A DNA stretch of 20,453 nt from positions 1 through 20,453 of IMG/VR virus record IMGVR_UViG_3300031631_000037; one strand, 5' to 3'. The number at the start of each line of letters is the position of its first letter. The first letter of the stretch is position 1. The position numbers and the translations under genes are program-made. The notes beneath the pieces are model-generated. The model saw nothing but the letters and a program-made list of their open reading frames with translations, made no database searches and had not been told where the DNA came from. The stretch is from a virus. Positions 2,649 through 14,748 of this stretch are shown here, one piece after another.

Positions 2649-3191
2649 CTATAGTTTATCGAGATATCTGGTTTTAACAATATCAGCGAACTCCATTTCA
2701 TCAGCAAATACACTACTGATTTTTTCTAATTGATTTGGCTCAACATCAACTCGTAATTTAGCGTCTGGATTCATTAACATCTGTGCACATGCGGCAATAT
2801 TATTACCATGAGATAAATTAGACTTCTGTGTTGCAGTTAATACTGAATAAATATCAGCAACTGCATATGCCAACCATTGAATTACCTGTTTAGTATCAAC
2901 GAAATCATCCTCTAATCCCTTCTTATTTCTGATATCTTCTCTTACGAATTTCTTGATATTACTTAATGATCTCTGTTTCTTCAAATTCACTATTTGGTCT
3001 TCAGTTAATGAAACAATTTCCATTTGTATTTCATTAGGTTGATTAGTTAGATCTAATTCAGTATCACTATGAATAAATGTATATTCTCCTATTTCACCTA
3101 AATTAAGAATATTAACTTCATCTATTTGTCTATGATTAATAGTTGTTCCATTCGGTCCATCTGTTTGATAAACTATATATTTATAATGCAT
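2649..3191 (-). CDS. Conserved-looking hypothetical protein next to the DGR reverse transcriptase
   Basis: I do not recognise this 180-residue protein. The N-terminal half (1-60) is polar with short strand-like segments. Residues 65-100 are charged and helical (D-Q-I-V-N-L-K-K-Q-R). The rest is helical with an Ala-rich segment near 110-120. There are no membrane segments or signal peptide. Its ATG lies inside the last codons of the RT gene (11-nt overlap), with a good GAAGGAAG ribosome site, so the two are probably translationally coupled. It could be a fibre assembly factor, a small virion protein or an accessory of the retroelement; the sequence does not decide. Confidence 0.7.
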   Translation of the reverse strand: MHYKYIVYQTDGPNGTTINHRQIDEVNILNLGEIGEYTFIHSDTELDLTNQPNEIQMEIVSLTEDQIVNLKKQRSLSNIKKFVREDIRNKKGLEDDFVDTKQVIQWLAYAVADIYSVLTATQKSNLSHGNNIAACAQMLMNPDAKLRVDVEPNQLEKISSVFADEMEFADIVKTRYLDKL

Positions 3192-4188
3192 ATTCTTCCT
3201 TCGTTTCTTTGATTAAATTTTTCATGTTTGTATAATTACAAGTAAGTTTAGCATGTCCAAGTATTGAATTTAATGAAATAAATTCTCCTCGTTTCAATGC
3301 CATATAAAATCTATATATTGAACGTTTACGTAACATTTTCTTATGTTGATATGTTCTATAACCCACAAAATTTGTTCCAGTCTTAATTTTAGATATACGA
3401 AATTTAGATAATTCTAATTCAAGATGTTCTTTGATATATTTATCAATCATATGAAGATAATTAGTTGCTTGTTCCTTAGACAACCCAAGTAATATAAAAT
3501 CGTCTACATATCTAACATATTTCTTTACTTTGAGAACTCGTTTAATATAATGATCTATTCTATCAAGATATATTAAACCATATAATTGTGATAATAAATT
3601 ACCCACATATAATCCTTCATCATCTTTCGAAACAAATAACATCATGAGATCAAGAAGACTATTATCTTTTATTTTACGAGAAAGTCTATCACGCAATATT
3701 ATGTGATTCACACTATAATAATACTTGCGTATGTCTAATTGTAAATAATATGATTCTGAATCAGAAGAACGCATAAACTTCTGTACTTGTGCACTCGCTT
3801 TATGCGTTCCCTTACCTTTTCTACAACCATAACTATCAAAAATGAATCCTTTATCGAATTCATCATAAACAAGATCATATATGGTATGTTGCACTATACT
3901 ATCTCTAAATGTAGGAGCAACTATAAGTCGTTCCTTTGGTTCAAATATCTTAAACTCTCTATAACCAGATGGTGTATAAGTTTTATTAGATATTTCTTCT
4001 GATAGTTTTTGTAGGTTTCGTCCTATGTCTTTCTCAAAATCATAAACTGCTTTTTTGGTTCTTTTAGTTTTTCTGGCATTAAGATAACCATTGTATAAAT
4101 TATCAATATTAGCTACTTGAGTTAAGGAACAAGAATATAATTCAGTCTTGCCCTCAGTAAATTTCGTCAATTCGACAGGAAGTGCCAT
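3181..4188 (-). CDS. DGR-type reverse transcriptase
   Basis: This 335-residue enzyme copies TR RNA into adenine-mutagenised cDNA. The order of motifs is typical of DGR RTs. At about residues 87-125 are I-V-A-P-x-F-R-D and the hallmark F-D-S-Y-G-C-R-K-G-K-G-T-H-K-A. Motif A is L-D-I-R-K-Y-Y-Y (catalytic Asp152). The G-N-L-L-S-Q block (about 206-211) has Ser-Gln where retroviral RTs have Gln-Gly, a DGR trait. The catalytic box is Y-V-D-D (227-230), followed by N-F-V-G-Y-R. There is no RNase H, maturase or endonuclease domain. I chose the ATG at 4188, which has GGAG 8 nt upstream. The in-frame ATG at 4215 lacks a ribosome site and lies only 12 nt past TR. The gene follows TR and overlaps the next gene by 11 nt. 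Confidence 0.93.
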   Translation of the reverse strand: MALPVELTKFTEGKTELYSCSLTQVANIDNLYNGYLNARKTKRTKKAVYDFEKDIGRNLQKLSEEISNKTYTPSGYREFKIFEPKERLIVAPTFRDSIVQHTIYDLVYDEFDKGFIFDSYGCRKGKGTHKASAQVQKFMRSSDSESYYLQLDIRKYYYSVNHIILRDRLSRKIKDNSLLDLMMLFVSKDDEGLYVGNLLSQLYGLIYLDRIDHYIKRVLKVKKYVRYVDDFILLGLSKEQATNYLHMIDKYIKEHLELELSKFRISKIKTGTNFVGYRTYQHKKMLRKRSIYRFYMALKRGEFISLNSILGHAKLTCNYTNMKNLIKETKEEYAL

Positions 4189-4226
4189 CCCTATGTCTCC
4201 AGTATTTATTTGCATAATATCAGGGG

Positions 4227-4350
4227 AAAAATAGTCGGAACACCGGAAACCATTATTGTTATTATCATTAGTCCGGTTATTGTTGAAGTTACGGTTGAAC
4301 AGACCCGCATTAGCAGAATTGTTCCAGTTACCACAGCATTGAACATTATA
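4227..4350 (-). repeat. DGR template repeat (TR)
   Basis: The core TR, plus-strand 4231-4347, aligns without gaps to VR at 4849-4965 (offset 618). There are 21 mismatches and all fall at plus-strand T, that is, adenine in the transcribed TR; 36 such adenines exist. No other base differs. At the IMH-like end, position 4230 is the first non-adenine difference, as expected for an IMH versus IMH* boundary. Read in the VR frame, TR encodes C-C-G-N-W-N-N-S-A-N-A-G-L-F and then an Asn-rich run ending N-G-F-R-C-S-D-Y. It has AAC/AAT codons at nearly all variable sites, which avoids stop codons after adenine mutation. TR lies between avd and the RT gene, the same order as in Bordetella phage BPP-1. 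Confidence 0.95.
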
Positions 4351-4362
4351 AGGACACTCCCT

Positions 4363-4406
4363 TTCATTCTTAGTTCATTCTTAGTTCATTCTTAGTTCAT
4401 TCTTAC
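4363..4406 (-). repeat. Four tandem 11-bp repeats between avd and TR
   Basis: The plus-strand unit TTCATTCTTAG is repeated four times back to back (4363, 4374, 4385, 4396), with the last base of the fourth unit changed. The avd stop codon (4403-4405) lies in the fourth unit. On the transcribed strand each unit reads CTAAGAATGAA, so every copy brings a stop and an ATG. The array sits about 15 nt upstream of TR in the RNA and would form part of the leader of the template RNA. Slippage is a likely origin; a role in folding, Avd/RT binding or blocking ribosomes from TR is inference. Confidence 0.85.
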
Positions 4407-4792
4407 TTTAATTCTGATTTAATCCATCCACCAATCATCGCTCCTACTTCATTTACCATCGATGACATAAATAGATATTTTCTGTTTGCCTCATTTTCAG
4501 TGTTACTATGTTTTCCATTTTTGCAATAGAAATAATTTAATTCGTGTGCTAACTTAAATAACATTCTTAGTTGCTCATGTTTGACATCTAATGTCGTAAG
4601 TGTTGTTTTCTTATGATATCGCTTCTGACATTCAGTTACTAAATTGTATATATCATACATCACGTTTCTAATTTGTTGAGCTAATCCATATTTCTCATAT
4701 TTTGGAAAATGATTTAGGTATATACTCGCTTGTGTTATCATTTTCAAAAGCTTAACATGAAGATTAACTTCTGGGTTTTTTGTTTTACTCAT
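4403..4792 (-). CDS. avd: Avd, DGR accessory variability determinant
   Basis: This 129-residue protein is all-helical in appearance, matching the four-helix-bundle Avd family in length (about 120-130) and position. A recognisable family segment lies at about residues 28-50: H-F-P-K-Y-E-K-Y-G-L-A-Q-Q-I-R. It is followed by Lys/Arg-rich helices and a C-terminal helix with G-A-M-I-G-G-W-I-K. In BPP-1, Avd forms a pentameric barrel with a basic surface that binds the RT and template RNA and is needed for mutagenic homing. Here it lies between the target gene and TR. Its ribosome site AGGTC lies inside a duplicated octamer (plus-strand ATTGACCT at 4793-4800 and 4801-4808). The call is by family resemblance plus context. 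Confidence 0.88.
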   Translation of the reverse strand: MSKTKNPEVNLHVKLLKMITQASIYLNHFPKYEKYGLAQQIRNVMYDIYNLVTECQKRYHKKTTLTTLDVKHEQLRMLFKLAHELNYFYCKNGKHSNTENEANRKYLFMSSMVNEVGAMIGGWIKSELK

Positions 4793-4811
4793 ATTGACCT
4801 ATTGACCTATT

Positions 4812-4831
4812 ATGGGAGCTATCGCTCCCAT
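4812..4831 (-). promoter_or_regulatory. Hairpin/cruciform downstream of VR, 8-bp stem with 4-nt loop
   Basis: ATGGGAGC (4812-4819) and GCTCCCAT (4824-4831) form a perfect 8-bp stem around a 4-nt loop; on the coding strand the loop is GATA. It starts 11 nt past the stop codon of the target gene. In phage DGRs such as BPP-1, a hairpin or cruciform of this size just 3' of VR is known to be needed for efficient homing, and the loop here fits the GRNA type as I recall it. There is no U-tract, which argues against a simple terminator. Confidence 0.8.
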
Positions 4832-4842
4832 TTACACAAAAA

Positions 4843-6825
4843 CTAAACATAGGCGGAACACCGGAAACCATAAGTGATATAAGCATCAGTCCGGGTAGTG
4901 AGGAAGAAACGGTAGAACAGACCCGCATCAGCAGAATGGTACCAGTGACCACAGCAGAGAACATACATATTTTGAACATTATATCGATATAAAAAATCAT
5001 TACCAAACTGATTTGTTCCAGATGCATCAGATGATGTGTTATCCTTAGGAACAAACCCACATAGGTCACGACTGACACCAGTCGTTGCCGATGAAAATAC
5101 TGCGTTTGAACCACTTCCCCAATAAACAGATCCAGTTGTAGATCCCAATGCATGTGGTGACGTAACTACATCATATAATGTCGCAAGATGAGTAGTATTT
5201 CCCCACGCATCAGTTGAACCATCCCAACCACCAGTCAAATCACCCAATGCTGAAGTTTGTTTCAGCAAATAAATTGAGTCAGTTGCAATGGCGGTTGTAG
5301 CAGTTGATGTGGTTCCAAAATTAGTTAAACCTAAAGCAACTTCATACATTCCACCATTCAAATCACAAACACCATTATTCTGCCCATTATGTGTAGTCTT
5401 TGCAAACACAGATGCAGATCCTGTTAATGGTTTAGCTGCATCTTCATCACCAGCGGTTGTATATGTAACTGTACCATCATTAACATCTGCGAGACTTGAA
5501 TTACATCCTTTAGGGAAGTTAGTTGTTCCACCTGCATCATACCAAGCACAATATGTGGTCGCGGTAGCTGCTTGTGCATGTGCAACTGACAAAATAGCCA
5601 TGGCTCCCATCATAAATACCGAAGTATTATTATAGCCTGTTCCTCTGGCGCGGCTTAGGACAACCGCATCTGCTAAAATACCAGTACATCCAGTCATACC
5701 ACTTGATGGAGTATAACCAGCAGTAGTTGTCAATGAAATAGGAACGCCATTTTTAACAGATACACCTTTATCATTATCGGCTGGTGAAGCCATATATTTG
5801 TCGATGAAGAAGCCAGCTTTCTCAGCACCACCATCAATAAATGCACGATGCATTGAGTAGCCAGCGGCATTAGCGGCAGCTTCATCTGCGTAAGTGTCAG
5901 TTCCCGCAATATCCAATGCGTTAGCTCCATAAACTGAGTATTGTGGTGATGCTACATTACCAACACGGTAGAAGAACTTTGGAATATGGCACATGATTGA
6001 ACTTGTTGCTGTCTGGATATAGTTTCCGAAGTTATCGTGTTCAGAAACATCTGTTCCCGTCATTGCAACAAGACCGAGTGAAGTAAGTGTCTCGTATGAT
6101 GGCGCAACACCAAAATCAACATCACCAGCGGTTCCGATACCTATCTCAAAAGCAGCAGATGTAGTAAAGCTAAATGTAGTAGAATAAGCACTATCACCAT
6201 AAGTTGTTCCGGTGTACTTAACTCGCCAGTAATAAACAGTACCAACTAACAAGTTACCTGCGGGGATGTCGATAGTTTCTAAATTACCTGCATCTGCAAG
6301 ACTCTCATAAATAATAGTTACAAAACCAGAATCAGTTGATACTTGCCAACTGGATGAAGCGTGAGTATCTGTTCCGTTGACGCAAACAAAGGCATCTGCT
6401 GTAAGAGTTGGTGTTTCTCCAATATCGGTATCGGAATTTATTGGCAATGTATTTGTAGGTGTTTGAATATATGTATTAGAAGTTGTAAATGATATAGTTG
6501 AGGACCAGTCACTCCATCTCAGTTCTGAATCTTGATATCTAATTCTGCAATAGTGTAATGTCAAAAGGTTTAGTCCAGTAACATCAAATGATATAACTGC
6601 TGAACCTTCTAAAGTATTAATAACTGTTGTTGAGAAGTCATCTACTTCTGATATCTGAATTTGTGCATCTGATTGGTTATAGTCGTATAATGATCTATAA
6701 GTTGATCCAATAACAGTTAATGAGGGTGAAGATCCTGTATCACCATTTGTAGGAGATGTTATATTTGGAGTTTCAACCACTCCGAGAGTTTTTAATTTTT
6801 CTATATTATCTAATGATTTTGACAT
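4843..6825 (-). CDS. DGR target: tail-fibre adhesin with FnIII domains and a variable lectin-like C-terminus
   Basis: This 660-residue protein is the diversified receptor-binding protein. After a short N-terminus there are two FnIII-like modules at about 18-116 and 121-223; each starts with a Thr-Pro-rich turn and ends in F-x-x-x-W-S or Y-Y-W-R-V followed by S-F-T-T-S. Residues 225-660 look like the C-type lectin/formylglycine-generating-enzyme fold used by DGR targets, with W-G-x-x-x-x, a D-L-C-G-F-V-P motif and a terminal G-F-R-C-S. VR occupies residues 621-660. Relative to TR the changes are N621Y and Q623L, then all 14 Asn sites from 627 to 652 plus D648A and D658A. The fixed residues W628, G635, F637, G653, F654 and C656 match TR. 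The ribosome site is AAGGA, 6 nt before the ATG. It lies just after a tail fibre gene and before avd. The host receptor is unknown. Confidence 0.92.
   Translation of the reverse strand: MSKSLDNIEKLKTLGVVETPNITSPTNGDTGSSPSLTVIGSTYRSLYDYNQSDAQIQISEVDDFSTTVINTLEGSAVISFDVTGLNLLTLHYCRIRYQDSELRWSDWSSTISFTTSNTYIQTPTNTLPINSDTDIGETPTLTADAFVCVNGTDTHASSSWQVSTDSGFVTIIYESLADAGNLETIDIPAGNLLVGTVYYWRVKYTGTTYGDSAYSTTFSFTTSAAFEIGIGTAGDVDFGVAPSYETLTSLGLVAMTGTDVSEHDNFGNYIQTATSSIMCHIPKFFYRVGNVASPQYSVYGANALDIAGTDTYADEAAANAAGYSMHRAFIDGGAEKAGFFIDKYMASPADNDKGVSVKNGVPISLTTTAGYTPSSGMTGCTGILADAVVLSRARGTGYNNTSVFMMGAMAILSVAHAQAATATTYCAWYDAGGTTNFPKGCNSSLADVNDGTVTYTTAGDEDAAKPLTGSASVFAKTTHNGQNNGVCDLNGGMYEVALGLTNFGTTSTATTAIATDSIYLLKQTSALGDLTGGWDGSTDAWGNTTHLATLYDVVTSPHALGSTTGSVYWGSGSNAVFSSATTGVSRDLCGFVPKDNTSSDASGTNQFGNDFLYRYNVQNMYVLCCGHWYHSADAGLFYRFFLTTRTDAYITYGFRCSAYV
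4849..4965 (-). repeat. DGR variable repeat (VR), with IMH at its 3' end
   Basis: This is the copy of TR inside the target gene. It differs from TR at 21 of 36 TR adenines and at no other base. The substitutions are spread across the array, and on the coding strand A becomes C, G or T. The segment at the gene's 3' end (4849-4870, coding GGTTTCCGG-TGTTCCG-CTAT) is nearly invariant and GC-richer than its surroundings, as expected of the initiation-of-mutagenic-homing site. A second 12-bp match to the far end of TR lies 15 nt beyond the VR edge (4972-4983). Confidence 0.95.
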
Positions 6826-6894: not shown

Positions 6895-8319
6895 TTATAG
6901 ATATAAAATTTTCCAACCTATTGTTGAATTGACAAAAACCATTCTAATTGAAATTCCATTTGTATCTAAAATCAAATTTTCAGCTAAGCCTTCTATATTA
7001 TTACCATTATATGCAATAGAAACATTATTTGTCGTTAGATTTGATCCAACATCAACCAGTTCTACTTCAAAACCATCATTAGGTGTTGTAGGTAAAGTTA
7101 TCCCAAAAGTTTGAGTAGTTGAGTCTAAAAATACTTTAGAATACAATGTAACATCCATTGAATGATTATCAATTAAAGTCACCCAAGGGTTACCAAATTC
7201 AATTCCATCACCGGTATTATTTATCCAAACTGGTTGACTTGCTGAGCCTGAATAATCTGATTCAACATCATCCATAGATGTAATTGATCCAGATATAGCA
7301 GTCACTTCTTCCGAATAAACTTGAACATCTAAAATATCATTTAATTCAACAGTTATACCAGTTAAAGTTATTTGACCAGAAACAGTATCAATAAAATCAA
7401 CTCCGTGGTTTAATTTCAAACCATTAAAAAAGCATAAAGTATTACCAGCTACAAATAATGGATTTTCAACCAAAACTTGCGAAGCAGATAATGTAAATAT
7501 AAACTGAGTAACGCCGACACCAAGAGAAGGACCATCAACATAACCAAATATATCAACTAAATCACCTACATCTAAACCAGCAGTTATTGTTATTGATGTT
7601 CCAGATGAAGCAGTATAATCAGCTGAGTTTAATAAAATTCCATTTACAAATACTTGAACCTTATCAACATAATATAATAATGAATTAGAATTATCATCTA
7701 AACCTGTAAACAATGTTTGAGCGGCAGTTGCAGTATACAAAAATGAAGTAAACTCAGCTCCACCAGATCCACCAGAACCACCAACTGTTCCAAGTAATAT
7801 AACACCACCACCTAAAGCCAATCCAACCGATACAGATGTTTCAGTAGCAGTAACTGCTCCAGCAGTATCTTCTGACAAAAATATCTTAGTATTTGCTACT
7901 ATTGCTGTTCCGATATTAACAAAACCAGAACTAATAACCTTTCCATTAGTAACATCAGCGACACCGACCACATTTAATGTATCAAGTGAATCTGCTTGAG
8001 CTTTATGATAGTTTCCGGAAGCGAGGTTCTTATATACAAAATCATTATTTGCTACAGTACCTTCAAATGTTGCCAACTCATCAAAAAACTGACCTATATA
8101 TTCATGATCAGCTGAGTCGGCAAATATTCCTGCTTTATTAATATTTAATGAAGCTTCAATTTTATCTCTTAAAGTGTTCAAGATTGTCAATGTAGTTGGA
8201 TCGTAATCTCTTCCAGTCAATGTTATACCGAAATTTTCATTCAATACATCAACAATAGAAGTATAAGCATCCAACCATATCTCAAAATCTTCTGTTTGAA
8301 GAACTGTTTTTAATGCCAT
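6895..8319 (-). CDS. Tail fibre protein with two repeated adhesin modules
   Basis: This 474-residue protein has an N-terminal part (1-110) that is helical and could attach to the virion. Residues about 110-180 look like a beta-rich fibre segment. A Gly/Ser hinge follows (about 178-188). Two copies of a small beta module lie at about 190-262 and 268-341. Each copy reads F-x-x-x-x-A-x-Q-x-L-F, then V-F-V-N-G or F-F-N-G, then D-Y or D-F, G-x-I/T-x-I/L-T, and a closing D-x-x-D/V. Such modules are common in T4-like and cyanophage fibres. The C-terminal 110 residues are beta-rich and end the protein. The start overlaps the stop of a small coiled-coil gene (TAATG). It lies between the large DUF4815 protein and the DGR adhesin, so it probably belongs to the same fibre, for example as the shaft. 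No DGR repeat is found in it. Confidence 0.75.
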   Translation of the reverse strand: MALKTVLQTEDFEIWLDAYTSIVDVLNENFGITLTGRDYDPTTLTILNTLRDKIEASLNINKAGIFADSADHEYIGQFFDELATFEGTVANNDFVYKNLASGNYHKAQADSLDTLNVVGVADVTNGKVISSGFVNIGTAIVANTKIFLSEDTAGAVTATETSVSVGLALGGGVILLGTVGGSGGSGGAEFTSFLYTATAAQTLFTGLDDNSNSLLYYVDKVQVFVNGILLNSADYTASSGTSITITAGLDVGDLVDIFGYVDGPSLGVGVTQFIFTLSASQVLVENPLFVAGNTLCFFNGLKLNHGVDFIDTVSGQITLTGITVELNDILDVQVYSEEVTAISGSITSMDDVESDYSGSASQPVWINNTGDGIEFGNPWVTLIDNHSMDVTLYSKVFLDSTTQTFGITLPTTPNDGFEVELVDVGSNLTTNNVSIAYNGNNIEGLAENLILDTNGISIRMVFVNSTIGWKILYL

Positions 8320-8492: not shown

Positions 8493-11400
8493 TTATACTA
8501 CTTTCTTAAGAATATATTTTAAGTTTTGGAACACAGCTGAATTCTTTTCGGAAGTTGAATCGAAAACAATTTTACCTTTGAATACAGTATTAACATCTAA
8601 ATTTGAAACATCAGCTATATCAACAGTAAAAACTCCACCAGATGAAGTAGTAATTATCTGAGCATCAACTATTGTTCCAGTTGCTACTTTTAATATTACT
8701 GTTGAACCTGAATATGATTCAATTGTTCCAGTTGAAGCTCCAGTAGTTGCTCCAATAAAAGTATCATTAACGACAACAGAACCAGTTGGAGTTACATTAA
8801 CTAATTTGAAGTAAGGATCTAAATCAGTTTCATATATATTTCTTGTGAAACCATTATTCAAAACTTCTGATGATGTAGGAGAGGAATTAAGATCAAAATA
8901 CATTGTATCATCGATAGATGCTTGTAATGTTTTAGAACAAGTCCCAGGCATCGTTTCGTCTAAAATAACTTTTACATTATTATATTCAGGAACGCCAGTA
9001 ATTGTTTTTGTTAAATAAACACTATATTCAGTTATATCGTATCTAGATCCAACAACTAAATTATTAGCCATATTCATTATTGGAGTATATTTGCTTGCTC
9101 CATGTAATACGAATTTTAATTTAAGAGTAGATGATAGATCGTCTAATTCAACAAATTCGTCTGGATCAAAAGGGTGAAATATAACACCATCATCAGTTGA
9201 ATAAAAATAGTCTATTGAAGTTCCATCAGGGAATAAAGCTGATGGGGAATACTTAAAAAATACAATTTCATTTGCAAAGGTTATATTTTCTGTTATTATA
9301 GATCCAGTTCCATAATAGTTTCCTTCGAATAAATTAAAGGACAAATCAGTTTCTTGATGTGCCGTCCAAGTTGAATTATTTGAAGAAGTAAAAAATACCC
9401 CTGCTAAATAAGGATTCTTAGAAATGAAATTATCAGTAACAATATCCCGTTCACCCATTTTACCAATATAAACTCTCCAATCTACTGATTCGGAACCTAA
9501 TGATATAAAAAAGTTTGTTCTTCTTGGAATATAAATTGGTTTATCAAATTTTAAGTTAGTTGGTTGCCAACCAGTTACATCATATAAAATATCACTCGCT
9601 TTGAAATATTGTTTATGAAAAATAGATTCTGAACTTGGATAACCATTTATCACATATCCTATTTGTAAGAAAGCTGAAACATCAACATCAACTGATTTAA
9701 TATAAAAATTCAAAGATGTTAAGATTTTATCATCTGAAAAATAAAAACTTTGTGCTACTGGATCTGTAACACAATAAGTGTTAGGACCTTGTCCTGGAAA
9801 ACTCATTACAGGTAAGGTCGCTCCAGCAACACCACTTGATTTTGTTGTAACTGATGACGTGGTTGGAGTTCCCACGCTATCAACCAAAGTTGAAGTGTTC
9901 ATGTTTCCAGGTGGAACATTTGAAACTCCATCTGTAACTGTATAATTTAACCCCTCGCCTCCTGCGTAAGCTGCTTTAAACGATGACTCAAGGAGGCCTT
10001 GAGACATTCCTGTTTCAAGAGATGTTACCCAATAATCTAATCCACTAATATCAGGAGCTCTACCAGTAATTGTAGTGTAAAGATTATTTACAAACGAAAC
10101 GTCTTCAGTACTTGTTCCAGCATGACCGGCATATTCAGCTAATGTATTTTGTAGAGCTGCATTTACATCACCACCTTCTGCCATTTTATATCCAGCATTA
10201 TTTCCAAATTTCACTTCAGTAACATCCCCATAAACAATAAAAGTCTCTACAGGAAGTGAAACTGGATCAACTGGATCAACTGGATCAACTGGATCAACTG
10301 GATCAACTGGATCAACTGGATCAACTGGATCAACTGGATCAACTGGATCAACTGGATCAACTGGATCAACTGGAACCACTATTATTGGTTTAGGTGGATT
10401 ATATGTTGCAACAGGAGGATATACTGGGGCTGAATAATTATAACTCGTTAATGTTTTAGTTCTCTCAATATTAATTTCTTTTTCATAATATTTTTCCATT
10501 CCAGTTGATGTAAACGAGTTAATAGTATAATGTTTTCTATCAATAGTTAAATTTAAGAATTTAATAGAAATATTACCAGTTGGTATACCTGCTGGCATAG
10601 TTAAAGTTGCATTAAAAGTTTTATCAGATTGTACTATTGCCGCTGAATATGAATTTCCATCATTTGGAATGTGAACTGGGTAAATAGCATTTGTAACATC
10701 AGTCCATAGAGAATCTTCATTTGTTCCATTCCAAACAACCCCATCAGGACCTGTCAATGAAACTAACATATCATTAACATAAGCAATAATCTTTGAATCC
10801 TCTAACCATTCAACTGCTGATATTTGAATTGGAATTTGTCGAGCATTCTCAATAATAATTTCTTTCTGAAATTCAACCGTTGTATCAGTAGTAATATTAT
10901 TTATTGATGTAACTGTTTGATTTCGTAAAGAATAATTACTTGTGGAAACTGTTTTGTTTACAACAACGTTATCTATAACTTCATTTTCAATAATAATATC
11001 ATCGATCCAAGTATCAACATTAGGGTTTAATACAATATTCCCTGGAATAATATCCAAGAATCCATGAGGGTTCAAACTTACAGCTGAACTTCTAAAAATA
11101 TTTGATACAGATGTTATCTCTTCTATCAACGCAATAGTATATAAATTAGCATCTATCTCATATTTTTTAATATTATCAGTAACATTATTTGAATTTGTAA
11201 ATGTATTATGAGTATAATCCATATACATTTCTAAAGTGTTGAGGAAATAATTCAATGCACAATGAAATGAACCAGAATCACCTTCAGCTCTATTTAAGTT
11301 CTTAAAATTATCTACATAAATACCTTTAATCTCTGTTGGTAATTCACCAGCAATAATTTCTTGTTCTATTTCTTGTTGTGCTTGATTTTCTTCCATTTGA

Positions 11401-13701: not shown

Positions 13702-13709
13702 TATTTATC
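13702..13709 (-). promoter_or_regulatory. Possible late promoter box GATAAATA before the gp8-like gene
   Basis: The minus strand reads GATAAATA, matching the NATAAATA late-promoter form described for T4-like cyanophages. It overlaps the stop of the gp7-position gene and lies 22 nt before the gp8-like ATG. AT-rich DNA makes chance matches likely, so this is tentative. Confidence 0.28.
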
Positions 13710-14748
13710 ATTCATTAGTTAATGATATTAAAGCTCCTATTGATTCTGTGGCTAAGTTTCCAATCACAAATATTTGTGTAGGAGAAACTATTCCTGTTAT
13801 TGTAAAAGTAGAACTATTTCCAGGTGAACCAGATATAGTTATTTCAGTTCCCGTTTCAAATACTGAAAAATCAGTTCCTACAGATGTATTTATCGAATCA
13901 TCAACTGTATCGAAACTTATATTTGTATTACTAATTGTATAAAAAATATCTACTGGAATTCCTGGATCTTGTGTTAGTTTTTGAACTGTTAGTCCAAAAT
14001 AATCTTCTATATTTTTTGCTGTAATTACAAAAAAATTATCTTCAATGATAGATGAATAAGTCGAAGGATATCCTTTCAATATATTTTCATATATTAAATT
14101 CTGTTCGCCAGTAATATTATTAGTTCCAACAACACTTTCTTCGATATATCTTACTGTATTAGATGTAACTTGAGCGTCAAATATAACACCTTCTGCCGTA
14201 GCATAAACTAACTTCTTAAAGAATAATTTCTCACCAATAGGATGAGTCATACTTCTTAAAATTGTTTCATATACACTTGCATCCAAATCTGTTATTACTT
14301 CATATACATAATAAGCATAGAAGAAGTTATCATGTATCTTATGAGAACCACTTAGAGTAGAACTATTTAATTCAAAAATATAGTCTGAAGGATAAAAGAA
14401 ATCTAACGAACCACCAGTTAAATTAAAAATAAATCTAACAGAAGATTCTCCACCTTTATATGAATAAAAGTTCTTTGAATTAGTGACAAACTCTCTAATA
14501 TTAACATCACCTAAAAATTCAACTGGAAATGAACTTAAATATTGATAAACAAAATCAGATAATGTTTCTTCAGGTGTTTTACTAATATCAATAAAATTAA
14601 TAATATCATTTAGGACTTTGAATGGTCCGGTTTCTTCTTCCTGCATTTGTAAATAAGCAGTAATAAAGGAGACATATTTGGGATATTCCTCCTTTATATA
14701 TTCTGGTAATAAAGAATCAACTAAATAATTTAATGGTTTTTCTATCAT
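13708..14748 (-). CDS. Baseplate wedge protein at the gp7 position
   Basis: This 346-residue protein matches a type common in T4-like marine and cyanophage baseplates. Landmarks are L-P-E-Y-I-K-E-E-Y-P-K-Y-V-S-F near the N-terminus, F-Y-S-Y-K-G-G-E-S-S-V-R-F-I-F-N-L at about 112-128, then D-N-F-F-Y-A-Y-Y-V-Y-E-V and M-T-H-P-I-G-E-K-L-F. It is far shorter than T4 gp7 (1032 residues) and aligns with it poorly by eye, so the gp7 link rests on gene order (between gp6-like and gp8-like). The last 70 residues (about 277-346) form a small beta domain shared with the gp8-like neighbour. The gene starts right after the gp6 stop with no gap. Confidence 0.68.
   Translation of the reverse strand: MIEKPLNYLVDSLLPEYIKEEYPKYVSFITAYLQMQEEETGPFKVLNDIINFIDISKTPEETLSDFVYQYLSSFPVEFLGDVNIREFVTNSKNFYSYKGGESSVRFIFNLTGGSLDFFYPSDYIFELNSSTLSGSHKIHDNFFYAYYVYEVITDLDASVYETILRSMTHPIGEKLFFKKLVYATAEGVIFDAQVTSNTVRYIEESVVGTNNITGEQNLIYENILKGYPSTYSSIIEDNFFVITAKNIEDYFGLTVQKLTQDPGIPVDIFYTISNTNISFDTVDDSINTSVGTDFSVFETGTEITISGSPGNSSTFTITGIVSPTQIFVIGNLATESIGALISLTNE

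What the first reader, a model, noticed from the sequence alone, without database searches (positions are those of the whole stretch)
3181..6825. Complete diversity-generating retroelement in a T4-like phage tail region
Target adhesin, Avd, TR and DGR-type RT occur in the same order as in phage BPP-1, embedded between baseplate/fibre genes and the lysis block. TR and VR differ at 21 positions over 117 nt, all at TR adenines. This is direct evidence that the element has been active on this gene. It would let the phage change its receptor-binding tip.
Basis: partly seen in the sequence, partly recalled or inferred. Interest (0 to 1): 0.95.

Follow-up and report, generated by a model that had tools for sequence, protein, structure and literature searches.

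The report
Diversity-generating retroelement in T4-like phage
A T4-like virus of bacteria carries a complete, standard "diversity-generating retroelement" that rewrites the tip of one of its tail proteins at chosen letters, so the find is real and well supported but of a known kind; its one unusual trait is that a structured guide part of its RNA overlaps the start of the enzyme gene.

Summary
On the minus strand, in the BPP-1 order, lie a 660-aa target, avd, the template repeat (TR) and a DGR-type reverse transcriptase (RT). TR and VR differ at 20 of 35 TR adenines and at 0 of 81 other positions over 116 nt (21 over 117 counting one edge adenine). The RT falls with 51 other DGR RTs, apart from group II intron RTs. 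The target's C-terminal domain folds (pLDDT 92) like the Thermus DGR variable protein (Z 31). Related viral contigs give 75 TR/VR pairs with the same adenine bias, and four pairs of closely related phages differ in VR almost only at TR adenines. No close relative of this phage was found, so its own activity is inferred. One A-to-C difference (4235/4853) is the same in 44 of 44 related elements: a fixed boundary mark, not random mutation. After TR comes a conserved, covarying RNA (32 loci) that matches the window (E 7e-12) but not Rfam's Phage_DGR; every usable RT start codon lies inside it. Verdict: a new member of a known kind; the RNA/RT overlap is a small, testable novelty.

The parts
4843..6825 (-). 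DGR target gene, 660 aa: Ig/FN3-like N-terminal repeats, then a 435-aa C-type-lectin-like domain ending in the VR
   Evidence: ORF; weak Ig hit; model pLDDT 92.3, TaqVP Z 31.1
4849..4965 (-). Variable repeat (VR), residues about 622-659 of the target; 17 amino acids differ from the TR reading
4853..4853 (-). Fixed TR/VR difference at the 3' end (TR GACT at 4235, VR GCCT): probable IMH*/IMH mark
   Evidence: 44 of 44 GACT-ending related elements show A to C here
4812..4831 (-). DNA hairpin/cruciform ATGGGAGC-GATA-GCTCCCAT, 8-bp stem, GRNA loop, 18 nt past VR
   Evidence: matches the rule in PMC3240598
4403..4792 (-). avd, accessory variability determinant, 129 aa
   Evidence: Pfam bAvd 3.6e-16, PHROG Avd 6e-21, NCBIfam DivGenRetAVD 74.6 bits with cut-off 80
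4363..4405 (-). 11-nt tandem repeat, 3.9 perfect copies, between the avd stop and TR, in the 5' part of the DGR RNA
   Evidence: function unknown
4231..4346 (-). Template repeat (TR), 116 nt; 14 AAY codons in the VR frame
4114..4236 (-). Spacer (Sp) RNA match; conserved structured core about 4236-4160; begins in the TR 3' end and runs into the RT reading frame
   Evidence: covariance model R1 built from 32 other loci: 49.5 bits, E 7e-12
3181..4215 (-). DGR reverse transcriptase, 344 aa from the first ATG (alternative ATG at 4188 after GGAG); YVDD box, LLSQ motif

Best explanation
This is a complete BPP-1-type (Avd-bearing) diversity-generating retroelement in a T4-like contractile-tail phage. 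The RNA that spans the avd end, TR and spacer is copied by the RT-Avd complex into cDNA with random bases opposite template adenines. The cDNA replaces the VR at the 3' end of the target gene, guided by the conserved TR/VR 3' end and the GATA-loop hairpin. This changes up to about 17 residues of a C-type-lectin-like domain on a tail protein, while TR stays constant. Shown here: anatomy, adenine-only TR/VR difference, RT and Avd identity, target fold, hairpin, spacer RNA homology, and adenine-site variation in related phages. Inferred: current activity in this phage, the location of the target on the virion, and receptor switching.
For: TR/VR 20/35 A against 0/81 non-A. RT: BPP-1 bRT E 2e-42 against group II RTs at about 1e-16 or weaker; tree. 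Avd. Target fold TaqVP Z 31.1, with Mtd and TvpA also found. Hairpin. 75 related loci: 1108 of 2074 TR adenines differ against 29 of 6511 other positions. Related phages with different VRs. Spacer RNA.
Against: No near-identical genome or read data for this phage, so its VR has been seen in one state only. A fixed, no longer active TR/VR pair would look the same. Two of the near-identical relative pairs have identical VRs. The contig is a 20-kb fragment with unknown host.
Confidence: 0.96

Rival explanations
1. The DGR is a decayed relic: the TR/VR difference records past activity, and the phage now carries a fixed tail tip.
For: Relatives show decay: L008 keeps the target, the VR hairpin and the avd start but lacks about 1.5 kb of avd-TR-RT; L011 has an in-frame avd-RT fusion with TR and the RT N-terminal half deleted.
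Against: In the window RT and Avd are open and intact, the YVDD box is present, and TR, the spacer RNA match and the hairpin are all kept.
Confidence: 0.1
2. TR and VR are ordinary duplicated sequences next to a group II intron-like or defence RT.
For: Group II and DRT profiles hit the RT weakly.
Against: Group II score 124 against a cut-off of 300; RT falls with the DGR RTs; adenine bias p = 2e-13; Avd and variable-protein fold present.
Confidence: 0.01
3. The target diversifies something other than host attachment, for example an adhesin that binds surfaces or mucus while true receptor binding lies in another fibre.
For: The receptor role is by homology only; at least one more putative fibre gene lies next to it (6895-8319).
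Against: Phage DGR targets are mostly tail proteins linked to host attachment (PMC8144416); position beside baseplate genes.
Confidence: 0.2

Closest known systems
Bordetella phage BPP-1 DGR (mtd-avd-TR-brt)
   Same: Same gene order, Avd, adenine-only TR/VR difference, GRNA-loop hairpin after VR (8-bp stem in both), RT related (29.5% identity)
   Different: T4-like contractile-tail context; target domain closer to TaqVP than to Mtd; spacer RNA does not match Rfam Phage_DGR, which BPP-1 does (104.7 bits); RT start codons lie inside the spacer RNA, while in BPP-1 brt starts about 145 nt after TR
Pseudomonas phage Bise DGR (OR683401)
   Same: Target-avd-TR-RT order, RT 45% identical, GACT/GCCT mark, same spacer RNA family
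   Different: Different phage type; RT start lies downstream of the spacer RNA
Thermus aquaticus variable protein TaqVP (5vf4)
   Same: Fold of the target C-terminal domain (Z 31.1, rmsd 2.6 over 295 residues)
   Different: 20% sequence identity
   Same: Nearest RTs (L007 55% identical), target domain 62% and 58% identical, and the same RT-in-spacer overlap with an ATG in the same place
   Different: The genes next to L007's cassette are not the window's T4-like baseplate set, so the cassette moves between phage types

Membership tests
Diversity-generating retroelement | TR/VR pair with differences confined to TR adenines | tested here: met
   20/35 A, 0/81 non-A
Diversity-generating retroelement | RT of the DGR clade | tested here: met
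   bRT best PDB match; tree with 51 other DGR RTs apart from group II RTs; outgroups were group II only
Diversity-generating retroelement | Accessory protein (Avd) | tested here: met
   Pfam bAvd 60 bits, cut-off 40; NCBIfam just under its cut-off
Diversity-generating retroelement | VR at the C-terminus of a C-type-lectin-fold protein | tested here: met
Diversity-generating retroelement | Hairpin/cruciform with GRNA loop downstream of VR | tested here: met
   8-bp stem, GATA loop
Diversity-generating retroelement | Adenine-mutagenised cDNA and transfer to VR | not testable with these tools
   needs bench work or reads of this phage; seen as standing variation in relatives only
Rfam RF03022 Phage_DGR RNA | Match at gathering score | tested here: not met
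   no match in the window, while BPP-1 scores 104.7 bits
T4-like phage | T4-type baseplate and head genes | tested here: met
   PHROG baseplate wedge subunits, hub/lysozyme, tube cap, major head protein; genome fragment only
Group II intron RT | Curated score of TIGR04416 | tested here: not met
   124 bits, cut-off 300

The most novel reading that the evidence does not exclude
In the lineage of this phage (window, L007, L027) the structured spacer RNA, needed in BPP-1 to recruit RT-Avd and prime cDNA synthesis, has fused with the RT coding start. A ribosome starting RT synthesis must then unfold the RNA that RT binds, so each transcript is either translated or used as template: a built-in feedback switch on mutagenesis.
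Probability: 0.3. Interest if true: 0.5.

Novelty: new member of a known kind. Interest (0 to 1): 0.36.

Why it matters
It adds a well-supported case of targeted tail-tip diversification in a T4-like phage and places it in a clade of related elements whose VRs vary at template adenines between closely related phages. It also yields a reusable covariance model of a spacer RNA that Rfam does not recognise in the window or in the sampled relatives. The overlap of that RNA with the RT start makes a regulatory question testable. The same cassette in phages with unrelated neighbours, together with deletion scars, shows gain and loss of the system.

Tried and rejected
RT as a single-protein query found no relative in IMG/VR; an alignment query was needed. 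DNA and TR/VR pattern searches for near-identical genomes found none. The first structure model of the whole target was useless (pLDDT 34), so the C-terminal domain was folded with 40 aligned sequences instead. Single-sequence RNA folding of the window spacer is not better than shuffles (z 0.78), so the RNA claim rests on the covariance model. Model R1 does not match BPP-1; a weak Rfam RT-14 hit in L012 (23.7 bits, gathering 48.1) did not recur in L036 or L019. A paper on bRT-Avd RNA control (PMC11995886) was not held, so whether its authors described this spacer variant could not be checked. No open-access paper on a DGR in a T4-like phage surfaced, which is weak evidence of absence.

Full report
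Observation. The window is a 20,453-base IMG/VR virus record. On the minus strand lie, in order, a 660-aa ORF (6825-4843), a 129-aa ORF (4792-4403), a 116-nt repeat (4346-4231) and a 344-aa ORF (4215-3181). The repeat copies the 3' end of the first ORF at a distance of 618 nt. Aligned without gaps, 20 of 35 adenines of the intergenic copy are changed in the gene copy, and none of its 81 other bases; Fisher p = 2e-13. In the VR frame the TR holds 14 AAY codons, the changes fall in codon positions 1 and 2 with one exception, and 17 residues (623-658) differ.

Identity of the parts. The RT matches the BPP-1 RT as best solved structure (E 2e-42; next, a group II intron RT, 8e-17) and PHROG RT family 1423. 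It scores far below the group II cut-off. In a tree of 56 RTs it falls with 51 other DGR RTs, separated from four group II RTs with support 100. Its nearest rows are L007 and L027. The 129-aa protein is Avd. The C-terminal 435 residues of the target were folded with an alignment of 40 sequences (pLDDT 92.3). The best PDB match is TaqVP, a DGR variable protein (Foldseek 1.5e-15; Z 31.1 over 295 residues); the Mtd variants of BPP-1 and Treponema TvpA (2y3c) follow at Z about 12, level with formylglycine-generating-enzyme-type chains. The VR is therefore at the C-terminus of a C-type-lectin-like domain.

A missed part. Eighteen nt past the VR lies ATGGGAGC-GATA-GCTCCCAT (4812-4831). This meets the rule in PMC3240598 (7-10 bp stem, 4-nt GRNA loop, 4-34 bp from VR), where the hairpin was shown to be required for efficient retrohoming. 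Across 73 related elements a GRNA-loop hairpin of 6 bp or more follows VR in 25, against 0.4 expected from shuffles (uninterrupted-stem criterion, so an undercount).

Relatives. The target query fetched 12 viral contigs, the RT alignment 80 more. The order target-avd-TR-RT recurs. In 75 elements 1108 of 2074 TR adenines differ from VR, against 29 of 6511 other bases. The detection score favours adenine mismatches, so the size of this bias is partly built in. The pair test is not: L040/L042 11/24 v 0/85; L099/L100 16/24 v 0/76 with one flank mismatch in 5720; L093/L094 22/36 v 2/83; L086/L090 15/26 v 2/93; these pairs are 98.9, 99.7, 98.7 and 90.6% identical over the shared stretch. Two other pairs have identical VRs. 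L015 and L016 (96% identical) differ densely in the VR although no RT was found on either contig. Decay is seen: L008 lacks avd-TR-RT but keeps the hairpin and avd start; L011 has an in-frame avd-RT fusion. Phages with similar baseplates, L005 and L006, show no RT on 42-kb and 89-kb contigs, and L007's cassette sits among unrelated genes. The cassette is therefore patchy and exchanged.

A fixed mark. In 44 of 75 elements the last TR/VR difference is GACT to GCCT, always C, the window included (4235/4853). Random mutagenesis would give three outcomes. This is best read as the counterpart of the IMH*/IMH difference of BPP-1 (knowledge of the BPP-1 system), or as selection on the encoded residue. 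It should not be counted as mutagenesis.

Spacer RNA. Downstream of TR, 32 related elements share a structured RNA. Of 20 consensus pairs 14 show changes on both sides, 92% of cells pair, and the covariation score is 0.54 against 0.14 in shuffles and at most 0.10 when slid. Its first helix pairs the CT of the terminal GACT. A covariance model built without the window finds 4236-4114 of the window at 49.5 bits, E 7e-12, and L007 and L027 at 2.6e-12 and 3.1e-10. Single-sequence folding does not detect it. Rfam's Phage_DGR model finds BPP-1 (104.7 bits) but not the window or the relatives scanned.

Overlap with the RT. In the window, L007 and L027 the RT frame is open through this RNA. In the window the in-frame start codons upstream of the conserved RT domain (ATG 4215, ATG 4188 after GGAG, TTG 4170) all lie inside the RNA match; L007 and L027 have an ATG at the site of 4215. 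Most other elements start RT downstream, often at an MKR or MPKR, and BPP-1 does too. That translation and template use compete is a proposal, not shown.

Mechanism and limits. The steps (RT-Avd recruitment by the spacer, priming in it, adenine mutagenesis, hairpin-aided transfer) are those established for BPP-1 (PMC3240598; PMC12875486) and are inferred here by homology. Host, lifestyle and virion position of the target remain unknown.

Novelty. DGRs in phages and their tail targets are well surveyed (PMC8144416; PMC7981956). This is a new member; the RNA/RT overlap is a variant-level trait.

Noticed in passing
4363-4405: Perfect 11-nt tandem repeat (3.9 copies) between the avd stop and TR, near where cDNA synthesis ends in BPP-1; no function known.
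   Followed up: partly
10260-10374: 9-nt repeat, 12.8 perfect copies, encoding a (Val-Asp-Pro)n linker in the 1455-aa DUF4815-type tail protein, followed by a DUF4214-like stretch (by eye).
   Followed up: no
844-1602: 252-aa protein that by eye resembles a PAS domain; no Pfam, PHROG or NCBIfam hit.
   Followed up: partly
2-787: Protein with repeated roughly 25-30-residue units (SN...TS.I); no PHROG hit.
   Followed up: no
L015:4579-6147 and L016:7629-9506: Near-identical phages with hypervariable target 3' ends but no RT found on their contigs: a DGR acting in trans, or recent loss.
   Followed up: partly
L011:9544-10491: In-frame fusion of avd with the C-terminal half of the RT, with TR deleted.
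   Followed up: partly
L002:4842-7655: The counterpart of 13708-14748 carries a long insert of repeats (WYSG...YATS.DG..W) that look like glycosidase propeller blades by eye.
   Followed up: no
4190-4345: The RT reading frame is open backwards through the whole TR, in the same frame as the VR in the target; also in L007 and several relatives.
   Followed up: no
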